From positions 21,738 to 85,737 of the forward strand of contig JAFUTW010000038.1 of NCBI GenBank assembly GCA_017484085.1: a DNA stretch of 64,000 nucleotides. Reading direction: 5' to 3'. Shown in pieces: positions 55,832-63,992 of the stretch (its first letter is position 1; every line of letters begins with the position of its first letter). A program made the translations under genes and the position numbers. The notes under the pieces are model-generated. The model made no database searches, had not been told where the DNA came from, and saw nothing but the letters and a program-made list of their open reading frames with translations. Source of the stretch: Clostridia bacterium. Lineage in GTDB: Bacteria > Bacillota > Clostridia > Christensenellales > Aristaeellaceae.

Positions 55832-55904
55832 GTTCTTTTTTACCGGACAAAACCGTTTTGTTCTTGAACGGTTATCTAATGAGCTGTGATAAGCTTAAAC
55901 CGGA

Positions 55905-55933
55905 TTGAATTAAACACACCAAACGCCTATAAT
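55905..55933 (+). promoter_or_regulatory. Promoter of the DIP1984-family gene
   Basis: TTGAAT (55905-55910), 17 bp, TATAAT (55928-55933), 36 bases before the ATG. Confidence 0.8.
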
Positions 55934-55969: not shown

Positions 55970-56425
55970 ATGAAACTGGCTGAAGCTTTGCAGGAACGGG
56001 CGGATCTGGTCCGCAAAATCGGCGAATTACGGGGCAGGCTGAGCGATAACGCGACTGTGCAGGAAGGGGAGAACCCGGCAGAGGACCCGGCGGTCCTCCT
56101 TACGGATCTGCGATCTGCGATTGCGAAACTGGAACAGCTGACTGCGGCTGTTAATCTGACCAATACCCGAACGGAGCTGGACGGGAAAACACTGACGGAA
56201 CAGATAGCCCGGAGGGATGCGCTGCGGCTGCAGATCGAAGCCCTGAGGGAGGTCATTGCCGAGGGCAGTCGGCTTGCCAAAAGGGCAGCGCATACCGAAA
56301 TCCGCATTCTTTCGGCTGTGGATGTACCTGCGCTGCAGAAAGAAGCGGATGCGCTGTCGGCGGAGCTGAGAAAGCTGGATAACCGGATACAGGAGACCAA
56401 CTGGACGACTGAAATGGCGCTGTAA
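55970..56425 (+). CDS. DIP1984 family protein
   Basis: A 151-residue, almost wholly helical protein of the DIP1984 family (some entries carry the unsupported name 'septicolysin'). It has charged heptad-like helices (LAEALQERADLVRKIGELR, DLRSAIAKLEQLTAAVN) and a conserved-looking NLTNTRTELDGKTLTEQIA segment. The ATG at 55970 follows GGAGGAAGAG, and the open frame upstream crosses the promoter. The function is unknown. The last three codons (GCG CTG TAA) form one arm of the first helix of the structured RNA candidate that follows, so gene and RNA appear to be a single unit. Confidence 0.85.
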   Translation: MKLAEALQERADLVRKIGELRGRLSDNATVQEGENPAEDPAVLLTDLRSAIAKLEQLTAAVNLTNTRTELDGKTLTEQIARRDALRLQIEALREVIAEGSRLAKRAAHTEIRILSAVDVPALQKEADALSAELRKLDNRIQETNWTTEMAL

Positions 56426-56545
56426 GCGCTGCTGGTAGCTTGCGGTGCGGGTGCATCTCGGCGACAGAGAACGGAGTCGTGCGCTATGGAGCCCGGGAGC
56501 AGGGCGGGGTTCGAATCCCTACAGCATCGTAAGGCTCTATCGCGC
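56417..56545 (+). ncRNA. Candidate structured RNA with tRNA-like T-arm
   Basis: About 130 bases starting in the last codons of the DIP1984-family gene. Helix A pairs 56417-56427 with 56438-56448 (11 bp, some G-U) and has a 10-base loop ending in GGTA, as in a tRNA D-loop. A hairpin with the canonical T-loop TTCGAAT (56510-56516) has a 4-bp stem, 56506-56509 with 56517-56520. Helix B pairs 56481-56493 with 56533-56545 in 12 of 13 positions and encloses the T-arm. The loop of helix A (56428-56434) is complementary at six of seven positions to 56522-56528, directly after the T-arm, which would make either an acceptor-like stem or a pseudoknot. There is no normal anticodon arm. No Rfam class could be tested. 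Confidence 0.55.
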
Positions 56546-56694
56546 ATAAACGCATTGACAAGGCGCATACTTCATTACCGCGCACCGGCTGCAGGCGAGG
56601 GTGGGAACGGGGATACTATAGTCGCGCTTTTAACGGCTGATCCGGTCCTGAACGGAACGGACAGCAGAAGAGATGGCATGAAACCGGAGAAACA

Positions 56695-63339: not shown

Positions 63340-63413
63340 AGGGGTATGGTGTAATGGTAACACGTGGGTCTCCAAAACCTTTGTTGAGGGTTCGAGTCCT
63401 TCTGCCCCTGCCA
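63340..63413 (+). tRNA. tRNA-Trp (CCA anticodon)
   Basis: A full cloverleaf: acceptor stem AGGGGTA with TGCCCCT, T-loop GGTTCGAGTCC, anticodon CCA at 63372-63374. The 3' CCA is encoded. It is a single-gene unit with its own promoter and terminator. Confidence 0.95.
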
Positions 63414-63460
63414 GCCTGTTTTTCTAATTACAATTAGAAGGACAGGCCTTTTTATTTTTT
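63414..63460 (+). terminator. Intrinsic terminator after tRNA-Trp
   Basis: Arms 63414-63429 and 63432-63447 form a 15-16 bp stem with two G-T pairs and a very short loop, followed by a T-rich tract. Confidence 0.88.
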
Positions 63461-63523
63461 TACGGCAACTGCGATCACATTTTGCTCCAAAGTGGATTGA
63501 TTAAAAGAAATTCAGAAAAAGCG

Positions 63524-63552
63524 TTGACAAAAAGGCGTCTTTCGTGTATCAT
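63524..63552 (+). promoter_or_regulatory. Promoter of the Val-Asp-Phe-Gly-Cys tRNA cluster
   Basis: TTGACA (63524-63529), 17 bp, TATCAT (63547-63552), about 47 bases before tRNA-Val. Confidence 0.8.
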
Positions 63553-63599
63553 ACCATCTGTCGCCGCGCTCGACACAGTCTTGCGATGCGGCGGCGCCC

Positions 63600-63675
63600 G
63601 GGAGCATAGCTCAGCTGGGAGAGCATCTGCCTTACAAGCAGAGGGTCACAGGTTCGAGCCCTGTTGTTCCCACCA
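63600..63675 (+). tRNA. tRNA-Val (TAC anticodon)
   Basis: Acceptor GGGAGCA with TGTTCCC, anticodon TAC at 63633-63635 at the standard position 34-36, T-loop GGTTCGAGCC, CCA encoded. Confidence 0.97.
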
Positions 63676-63679
63676 ATAT

Positions 63680-63756
63680 GGCGCGGTAGTTCAGTTGGTT
63701 AGAATGCCAGCCTGTCACGCTGGAGGTCGAGGGTTCGAGCCCCTTCCGCGTCGCCA
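63680..63756 (+). tRNA. tRNA-Asp (GTC anticodon)
   Basis: Acceptor GGCGCGG with CCGCGTC (one G-T pair), anticodon GTC at 63714-63716, T-loop GGTTCGAGCC, CCA encoded. Confidence 0.97.
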
Positions 63757-63758
63757 AT

Positions 63759-63834
63759 GCCTTGGTAGCTCAGTCGGTAGAGCAGGAGACTGAAAATCTC
63801 CGTGTCGGTGGTTCGATTCCGCCCCAAGGCACCA
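63759..63834 (+). tRNA. tRNA-Phe (GAA anticodon)
   Basis: Acceptor GCCTTGG with CCAAGGC, anticodon GAA at 63792-63794, T-loop GGTTCGATTCC, CCA encoded. Two bases separate it from tRNA-Asp. Confidence 0.97.
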
Positions 63835-63840
63835 TTCCCT

Positions 63841-63915
63841 GCGGTAGTAGCTCAGTGGTAGAGTGCCACCTTGCCAAGGTGGATGTCGCGAGTCCGAATC
63901 TCGTCTACCGCTCCA
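63841..63915 (+). tRNA. tRNA-Gly (GCC anticodon)
   Basis: Acceptor GCGGTAG with CTACCGC, anticodon GCC at 63873-63875, T-arm GAGTCCGAATCTC, CCA encoded. Confidence 0.97.
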
Positions 63916-63917
63916 TT

Positions 63918-63992
63918 GGCGCCATAGCCAAGTGGTAAGGCAAAGCTCTGCAAAAGCTTTATTCTCCAGTTCGAGTCTGGATGGCGCCTCCA
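63918..63992 (+). tRNA. tRNA-Cys (GCA anticodon)
   Basis: Acceptor GGCGCCA with TGGCGCC, anticodon GCA at 63950-63952, T-loop AGTTCGAGTCT, CCA encoded. The cluster may continue beyond the window. Confidence 0.97.

What the first reader, a model, noticed from the sequence alone, without database searches (positions are those of the whole stretch)
56417..56545. tRNA-like structured RNA fused to the 3' end of a DIP1984-family gene
Seen directly: an 11-bp helix that uses the last codons and stop of the gene, a loop ending in GGTA, a T-arm with the exact TTCGAAT loop, a 13-position helix (12 paired) around the T-arm, and complementarity between the first loop and the bases directly after the T-arm. 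Known: bacterial Y RNAs and tmRNA copy D- and T-arms. Inference: the DIP1984-family protein and this RNA form one functional unit, perhaps a ribonucleoprotein. I know of no described RNA at this locus, but I cannot search.
Basis: partly seen in the sequence, partly recalled or inferred. Interest (0 to 1): 0.78.

Follow-up and report, generated by a model that had tools for sequence, protein, structure and literature searches.

The report
New bacterial RNA paired with protein
Right after a small protein gene of unknown function lies an undescribed, intricately folded RNA of about 185 bases that accompanies this gene in bacteria of several phyla, on plasmids and among the tRNA genes of some phages, so the protein and the RNA probably work as one unit.

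Summary
Downstream of DIP1984-family (DUF6847) genes lies a structured RNA that no Rfam family matches. In the window it spans 56430-56614; the given interval cuts it short. Covariation supports its fold: a long-range closing helix P1 (56438-56454 with 56582-56596), an H-type pseudoknot, a hairpin whose loop pairs downstream (second pseudoknot), an optional tRNA-type T-arm and a G-rich tail. Over 34 pairs in 62 sequences, 313 double-change cells were seen against 96.5 in shuffles.

A covariance model finds the RNA at 55 of 58 gene loci not used to build it, near-duplicates included. In 100 related genomes it was found in exactly the eight with a full gene. Gene and RNA are absent together from the same site in another genome of the genus.

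In five viral contigs the pair lies in or at the end of tRNA gene arrays; in three the RNA is doubled or separated from the gene by other ORFs. This favours a trans-acting RNA over a 3'UTR element. A tRNA- or translation-linked ribonucleoprotein is my inference; nothing was tested at the bench.

The parts
55905..55933 (+). sigma-70-like promoter TTGAAT-17-TATAAT before the gene
   Evidence: consensus scan, 10 of 12 matches; consensus match only
55970..56425 (+). DIP1984-family (NF038048, DUF6847) protein gene, 151 aa; coiled-coil type inferred
   Evidence: PDB 3kdq matches the family profile at 1.7e-45, designed antiparallel coiled coils at 8.9e-10 and 1.2e-5
56430..56614 (+). the RNA element, full extent of covariance model R1
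   Evidence: 132 bits, 1.8e-42 (the window is one of the 62 training rows); structure test
56434..56437 (+). conserved GGTA directly before helix P1
   Evidence: 61 of 62 RNAs with exact GGTA also have the G-rich tail, as do 26 of 37 without; the looser NNTA-tail association is not significant after correction for the tree
56438..56445 (+). P1a 5' strand (pairs with 56589-56596)
   Evidence: top covariation
56448..56454 (+). P1b 5' strand: 56448 and 56450-56454 (pair with 56587 and 56582-56586); G56447 and G56449 nearly invariant
   Evidence: covariation z 9-20, pair fraction 0.93-1.00
56456..56470 (+). pseudoknot 1, stem 1: 56456-56459 with 56467-56470
   Evidence: 71 and 87% of cells paired
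56462..56479 (+). pseudoknot 1, stem 2: 56462-56464 with 56477-56479, interlocked with stem 1
   Evidence: 82% of cells paired, all three pairs with double changes
56491..56505 (+). hairpin P3; its loop holds GAGC (56497-56500)
   Evidence: 74% of cells paired, all five pairs with double changes
56506..56520 (+). T-arm, loop TTCGAAT (optional part of the family)
   Evidence: 97.7% of cells paired where present; 58 of 99 RNAs
56534..56537 (+). pseudoknot 2: GCTC pairs with the P3 loop GAGC (56497-56500)
   Evidence: 84.7% of cells paired, double changes at 3 of 4 pairs; the window row is misaligned by one column there
56546..56579 (+). mostly unpaired strand with conserved A at 56546, 56554, 56567, 56574 and ACC 56577-56579
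   Evidence: conservation 0.96-1.00
56582..56596 (+). 3' strands of P1b and P1a
56598..56613 (+). G-rich tail A-GGG-N-GGG-NNN-GGGG directly after P1
   Evidence: G tracts 0.94-1.00 conserved where present; present in 87 of 99 by the pattern used

Best explanation
The window holds a two-part cassette: a DIP1984-family coiled-coil protein gene and, a few bases behind its stop codon, the gene of a new class of trans-acting noncoding RNA. Both are transcribed together from the promoter before the protein gene; the RNA is then released or kept as the stable 3' part (inferred). The RNA folds into a core closed by P1, with two pseudoknots, an often-present T-arm that copies the tRNA elbow, and a G-rich tail (fold shown by covariation). 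The protein is the RNA's dedicated partner, and together they form a ribonucleoprotein that acts on tRNAs or on the translating ribosome, in a stress, defence or counter-defence role (inferred). My estimates: structured RNA 0.97; obligate unit with the protein 0.93; trans-acting RNA 0.8; direct ribonucleoprotein 0.6; tRNA- or translation-related 0.5. The confidence below is for the whole chain.
For: Structure: 32 of 34 pairs have double changes; covariation score 0.444 against 0.212+-0.007 in shuffles and 0.06-0.12 when slid. Linkage: model hits at 55 of 58 loci not used in training, near-duplicates included; RNA in 8 of 8 genomes with a gene over the cut-off and 0 of 92 others (own genome among the eight); in 18 of 18 gene-bearing genomes of 299 in the phylum. 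Match start 3-57 nt behind the stop in 96 of 98; by a crude rule without shuffle control, a terminator-like site within 160 nt after the RNA in 45 of 98, between gene and RNA in 1 of 98. Gene plus RNA absent together from the same site in same-genus G011. RNA and protein identities correlate (Mantel 0.53, null maximum 0.24, 54 loci). No recurrent third gene: the commonest neighbour cluster is in 9 of 77 loci. Trans action: L181 has two tandem RNAs; L183 has two RNAs, the first behind two other ORFs; L184 has a 46-aa ORF between gene and RNA. Translation link: T-arm; in five of nine non-Acinetobacter viral contigs 13-23 tRNA genes lie within about 4 kb on either side, L184 also has an RF-1-domain (GGQ) gene. 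Seryl_tRNA_N is matched weakly by 5 of 58 proteins (best 0.0013), but other coiled-coil families are matched by more, so this counts little.
Against: No transcript, processing or binding data. The protein is not basic: net charge median -1 over 58 members, window -4, unusual for an RNA binder. The T-arm is missing in 41 of 99 RNAs. In bacterial chromosomes the unit is not generally beside tRNA genes: 13 of 74 loci have one in the fetched flanks. Four of nine viral contigs show no array. Exceptions to linkage: L040 has the gene without the RNA, L122 (second gene of a tandem) has no model hit, L131 has a run of N there, viral L206 has no hit. The whole-genome searches scored only the best 25 or 8 candidates per genome with strict filters, so absence of stray RNAs is not exhaustive. 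No terminator-like site was found behind the RNA in the window itself. Most bacterial loci keep the RNA directly behind the gene, which a 3'UTR element would also do. The separated copies in L183 score only 33.1 and 26.8 bits.
Confidence: 0.5

Rival explanations
1. The element is a cis-acting 3'UTR structure of the DIP1984 mRNA: it stabilises the message or lets the protein regulate its own synthesis, and has no separate RNA product.
For: Same strand, 3-57 nt behind the stop in 96 of 98 loci, no terminator-like site between in 97 of 98; no intact gene-less RNA found within the limits.
Against: Two RNA copies in L181 and L183, and other ORFs between gene and RNA in L183 and L184; gaps of 103 nt in L036 and 113 nt in L039; two pseudoknots and a T-arm are elaborate for a 3'UTR element.
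Confidence: 0.14
2. RNA-protein toxin-antitoxin pair of a type III-like kind: the protein is toxic and the pseudoknotted RNA holds it inactive, or the reverse.
For: Accessory and patchy: 8 of 100, 17 of 299 and 10 of 246 genomes over the cut-off, each set holding the genome it was centred on; 371 plasmid records, 342 of them Acinetobacter; two gene copies in G002 (different contigs), tandem copies in G116 and G202; one p-dif-like site 77 nt behind the RNA match in an Acinetobacter plasmid, by a recalled pattern.
Against: No match to the defence library for three members beyond a 0.0073 hit to LmuB; RNA lies after the gene and is not a repeat array; L040 and L206 carry the gene without a detectable RNA, which an antitoxin-less toxin should not tolerate.
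Confidence: 0.13
3. tRNA decoy or counter-nuclease: the RNA mimics the tRNA elbow to draw off tRNA-cutting or tRNA-modifying enzymes, the protein shaping or protecting it.
For: T-arm in 58 of 99 RNAs, 54 of them with loop TTCRANY; place among phage tRNA genes. [quoted passage not shown]
Against: No anticodon arm or acceptor stem in the conserved fold; ARAGORN calls no tRNA or tmRNA at the element in 26 loci; T-arm absent in 41 of 99.
Confidence: 0.15
4. No RNA: chance fold of intergenic DNA, or a coding or DNA-level element.
For: Single-sequence stability no better than shuffles; no transcript data.
Against: Covariation far beyond both controls; hits in records of several phyla at the same place.
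Confidence: 0.02

Closest known systems
Bacterial Y RNA (YrlA) with the Ro60 orthologue Rsr
   Same: A protein gene with a neighbouring noncoding RNA that copies parts of tRNA; in some bacteria only (PMC7790460, passages).
   Different: No Y RNA family match in the Rfam scans made; the partner protein is DUF6847, not Ro60; core of two pseudoknots closed by P1; T-arm optional.
tmRNA with SmpB
   Same: T-arm plus pseudoknots, small protein partner, translation context (tmRNA features recalled).
   Different: No acceptor stem in the conserved fold, no tag reading frame noticed (not searched for systematically), no tmRNA call by ARAGORN or Rfam at the element.
Class II tRNA and the seryl-tRNA synthetase arm
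   Same: Hairpin directly before a T-arm, like the long variable arm (recalled); 5 of 58 proteins weakly match Seryl_tRNA_N.
   Different: The hairpin loop is engaged in a pseudoknot; profile matches are at the level of other coiled-coil families; no fold comparison was possible.
Type III toxin-antitoxin (ToxIN)
   Same: Small protein plus pseudoknotted RNA on mobile DNA (type III features recalled).
   Different: RNA after the gene, one copy in bacterial loci, larger, no repeat array; no PADLOC family match worth the name.
T-box leader
   Same: Tail AGGGTGGG recalls the T-box AGGGUGGNACC motif (recalled).
   Different: The position after the first GGG varies and no ACC follows, the element lies behind the gene; no T-box match at the RNA.
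DIP1984 protein, PDB 3kdq
   Same: Same protein family, solved structure.
   Different: The entry names it an uncharacterized conserved protein; searches for 3KDQ and DUF6847 found no paper and DIP1984 one genome survey seen only in the listing.

Membership tests
tRNA | cloverleaf with acceptor stem and anticodon arm | tested here: not met
   ARAGORN finds none at the element in the window or 26 loci; Rfam tRNA model does not match it
tmRNA | recognised tRNA-like ends plus tag reading frame | tested here: not met
   no ARAGORN tmRNA call at the element (a tmRNA is found about 2.8 kb before the RNA in L016); no Rfam match. The tag frame itself was not searched for separately
Y RNA / YrlA | match to the Rfam family and a Ro60/Rsr gene beside it | tested here: not met
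   no family match; the gene beside it is DUF6847; a Ro60 gene was not searched for elsewhere in the genome
Type III toxin-antitoxin | toxic protein neutralised by the RNA | not tested
   needs expression experiments
Type III toxin-antitoxin | RNA repeats before the toxin gene (recalled) | tested here: not met
   one model hit per bacterial locus, behind the gene
any Rfam 15 family | score above the gathering threshold | tested here: not met
   window and 17 other loci with the RNA scanned (at gathering threshold only); best is mascRNA at 17.0 bits in the window, gathering 42.5
DIP1984 family protein (NF038048) | score over the curated cut-off of 70 bits | tested here: met
   168.6 bits, positions 1-149 of 149
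DIP1984-associated RNA (model R1, this work) | P1, two pseudoknots, position by a DIP1984 gene | tested here: met
   132 bits in the window, a training row; helices
Ribonucleoprotein | direct binding of protein and RNA | not testable with these tools
   only genetic linkage and correlated identities

The most novel reading that the evidence does not exclude
A previously unseen, widespread class of bacterial and phage ribonucleoprotein: a ~185-nt double-pseudoknot RNA with an optional T-arm and a G-rich tail, dedicated to the DIP1984 coiled-coil protein, carried by mobile DNA and among phage tRNA genes, and acting on tRNA or ribosomes, for instance as a translation rescue or tRNA-protection device used by both sides of the phage-host conflict.
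Probability: 0.4. Interest if true: 0.92.

Novelty: categorically new. Interest (0 to 1): 0.85.

Why it matters
It gives a protein family of unknown function (solved structure 3kdq; 371 plasmid records with a relative) a near-constant RNA partner, which changes what one would test it for. One plasmid record names the gene 'septicolysin', and at least one Acinetobacter paper counts septicolysin as a virulence determinant (PMC10803598, passages). It adds a large structured RNA class found in records labelled Bacillota, Bacteroidota, Spirochaetota, Actinomycetota, Pseudomonadota and Cyanobacteriota plus viral contigs, and in no Rfam family tested. Its place among phage tRNA genes makes a direct hypothesis about phage control of translation testable with simple laboratory strains.

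Tried and rejected
(2) My own D-loop reading of AGYNGGTA: not associated with the T-arm; only three independent pairs on the tree. (3) GGTA and G-rich tail as one module: strong uncorrected association (NNTA by tail 77/1/10/11, p=3e-8), but clade-clustered and partly due to local alignment truncation; not significant on the tree (6 pairs). A first version of this count with a lax pattern (p=0.08 for GGTA by tail, p=0.003 for T-arm by tail) was dropped; T-arm by tail is p=0.025, with 3 independent pairs on the tree. (4) RNA without gene: of the RNA-only or extra hits, G357 and the second G133 copy are 3' halves, G246 and G171 are tail-only hits that look coding, G325 has its gene cut by the contig end; G326 (17.9 bits, 35 nt) was not inspected. 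(5) Fold comparison of the protein: structure prediction off. (6) Literature: searches for DIP1984 (1 paper, listing only), septicolysin (24, of which passages of two were read), 3KDQ (0), DUF6847 (0), RtcB with tRNA-like and Y RNA (3), tRNA-like RNA terms (4), structured-RNA surveys (9, listing only) and phage tRNA arrays (0) found no description of the RNA; subscription papers and supplements were not searchable. (7) viral contigs with the window protein alone found nothing, with L182 only itself.

Rows dropped before counts: one search skipped 17 loci by name (repeats, truncated or non-family loci, and also L040, L131 and L121) and then 21 more whose tail did not fit the pattern; L039, L086, L112 were left out of the covariation; 8 of the 70 rows listed, and its second list of 20, were left out of A3; one search used 100 loci chosen to leave out near-duplicates and L040.

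Full report
What was checked first. The gene at 55970-56425 belongs to the DIP1984 family. From one sequence the case was therefore weak.

Relatives. A genome-contig search kept the best 80 of 410 loci with a related gene (its pattern list was itself capped). In nearly all of the 80 the bases behind the stop codon share one element: GGTA, then [G/C-rich]GCGAATGC, an interlocked stem pair, a hairpin with GGGC in its loop, often a T-arm, then ...GCCC...CATTGAC and GAGGGYGGGNNNGGGG. I added loci from 100 related genomes, 299 genomes of the phylum, 246 genomes of the phylum of the Coriobacteriaceae locus L077, and plasmid and phage records. After orientation by a protein profile the element was visible behind most genes.

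Structure. Covariation on 90 sequences (effective number 70) put one long-range helix at the top: 56438-56445 with 56589-56596 and 56450-56454 with 56582-56586, z up to 20. A hand-made structure of 34 pairs was then counted on 62 sequences: 87.0% of cells paired against 73.2% in shuffles, 313 cells changed on both sides against 96.5, covariation score 0.444 against 0.212+-0.007, and 0.06-0.12 when partners were slid. The alignment was made by MAFFT without structure, but I named the structure after looking at the sequences, so the slide control leans in its favour. Helix values: P1 inner part 95.5% paired, two outer pairs 76%; pseudoknot 1 stems 71-87%; hairpin P3 74%; loop-to-downstream pseudoknot 2 85%; T-stem 97.7% where present. 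The window's own hairpin loop GAGC meets GCTC downstream, a covariant of the usual GGGC/GCCC.

The strand behind GGTA finds no better partner upstream than in shuffled sequence (5.90 against 5.93 of 8) but pairs 7.24 of 8 with the P1a 3' strand. The 13-position helix pairs at the shuffled level (43.8 against 43.9%); one of five measures, cells with double changes, is slightly above (39 against 29.0). Both helices are features of the single sequence.

Extent of the family. A covariance model (R1) hit 99 of 100 chosen loci and 16 of 18 further family loci; without the training rows this is 55 of 58, several of them near-duplicates of one another. The misses are L122 (second gene of a tandem; by eye a degenerate RNA), L040 (gene without RNA) and L131 (run of N behind the gene). 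Weak family hits under the cut-off (L089, L120, L132, L133) have no RNA. The lowest hits behind a whole gene are Acinetobacter plasmids, 18.4 bits, at the expected place; L130, cut by a contig end, has 20.1. Later records not used for the model were hit in 11 of 11 cases (Streptomyces, Mycobacterium, Mycolicibacterium, Picosynechococcus, Psychrobacter and six viral contigs, of which L180 repeats the Acinetobacter plasmid sequence) and in L200, L202 (18.1 bits) and L204 but not L206.

Linkage. In 100 related genomes, the window's own among them, the RNA was found in exactly the eight genomes with a gene over the cut-off, nine copies for nine genes, and in none of the other 92. In 299 genomes of the phylum all 17 with a gene over the cut-off, and one with a gene cut by a contig end, have the RNA; four more have weak RNA-only hits, of which three were read: one 3' half and two tail-only hits that look coding. 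These searches scored only the best 25 or 8 candidates per genome with strict filters, so stray copies may have been missed. The match starts 3-57 nt behind the stop in 96 of 98 loci; the other two are L036 (103 nt) and L111 (175 nt, a partial match). By a crude rule, terminator-like sites follow it but do not precede it (45 against 1 of 98); in the window none was found. In the same-genus genome G011 the flanking amylase and VTT-domain genes lie 224 nt apart against 932 nt between the same matched stretches here, without gene and RNA. The missing block begins near 55847 and ends somewhere between about 56640 and 56744; G011 has some unalignable sequence of its own there, so the borders are not exact. 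Neighbours do not recur beyond 9 of 77 loci. RNA and protein identities correlate (0.53, null maximum 0.24).

Viral contigs. Of nine non-Acinetobacter viral contigs with a full-length gene, eight have the RNA. In five of the nine, many tRNA genes lie within about 4 kb on either side: L179/L203 23, L182/L198 19, L184/L207 17, L200 21, L204 13. In four of these the unit has tRNA genes close on both sides; in L182 it sits at the end of the array, the next tRNA gene being 3.7 kb on. In L179 it lies between two tRNA-Ser genes. The other four have 2 (L202), 1 (L181) or none (L183, L206). L184 has a 46-aa ORF between gene and RNA and an RF-1-domain ORF overlapping the RNA's last 14 bases. L183 has a Lar-family ORF and another ORF between gene and RNA, then an endonuclease VII gene and a second RNA. 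L181 has two RNAs in tandem. In the six whole records L179-L184 no further copies were found. These arrangements are hard to reconcile with a pure 3'UTR role.

Reading. Shown: a new structured RNA, its fold in outline, and its close genetic tie to the DIP1984 gene. Inferred: that it is made as an RNA, that it acts in trans, that the protein binds it, and that the target is tRNA or the ribosome. Against a simple ribonucleoprotein: the protein is neutral to acidic. Against strong tRNA mimicry: the T-arm is absent in 41 of 99 RNAs and changes at least 18 times on the protein tree. The T-arm may be a handle rather than the core. The G-rich tail, three G tracts with variable loops, could take part in a quadruplex or pair with another RNA; this is speculation.

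Novelty. No Rfam family matches in the scans made, and no paper found in the held library describes the RNA (searches; of PMC13141974, PMC10803598 and PMC7790460 I saw passages, of the rest only listings). I rate it categorically new as an RNA class, while the general idea of a protein with a dedicated noncoding RNA is known. Organism names of genome-contig loci are those of the records, mostly metagenome bins, and may be wrong in single cases.

Noticed in passing
L208 3944-4324, L209 3869-4189 (same as L210), L211 812-1126, L212 3998-4357, L213 3830-4156: Short (about 100-120 aa) DIP1984-like proteins in viral contigs, sharing the two ends of the family but not the middle; no R1 hit. Behind four of them (L208, L209, L211, L213) lies a different hairpin, loop RCCTYAA on a stem whose pairs change together, and in L209 and L211 a T-arm-like sequence further on; possibly a second RNA class.
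   Followed up: partly
L091 2501-2962 and other Acinetobacter plasmid records: A gene labelled 'septicolysin' in a plasmid record (H4) and counted as a virulence determinant in PMC10803598 (passages) is a DIP1984-family gene; where read (L091, L094, L095) the RNA lies behind it. The toxin name looks like a misnomer.
   Followed up: partly
G116 and G202 contigs (L106, L107, L121, L122): Tandem pairs of DIP1984 genes; the sequence behind the second gene (L121, L122) looks like a degenerate RNA without the G-rich tail.
   Followed up: partly
L154 (G133) and L153 (G357): Stand-alone 3' halves of the RNA without gene, which look like remnants.
   Followed up: partly
L018, L031, L032 and others without T-arm: Where the T-arm is missing, the hairpin P3 is often followed directly by a run of T, like an internal terminator (by eye).
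   Followed up: no
L002, L003, L005, L006 (Bacteroidales records): The 3' strand of P1 is followed directly by TTTTT, so the closing helix may double as a terminator; GGTA and G-rich tail are absent (by eye).
   Followed up: no
window 63340-63992: Cluster of six tRNA genes (Trp, Val, Asp, Phe, Gly, Cys) about 7 kb downstream.
   Followed up: no
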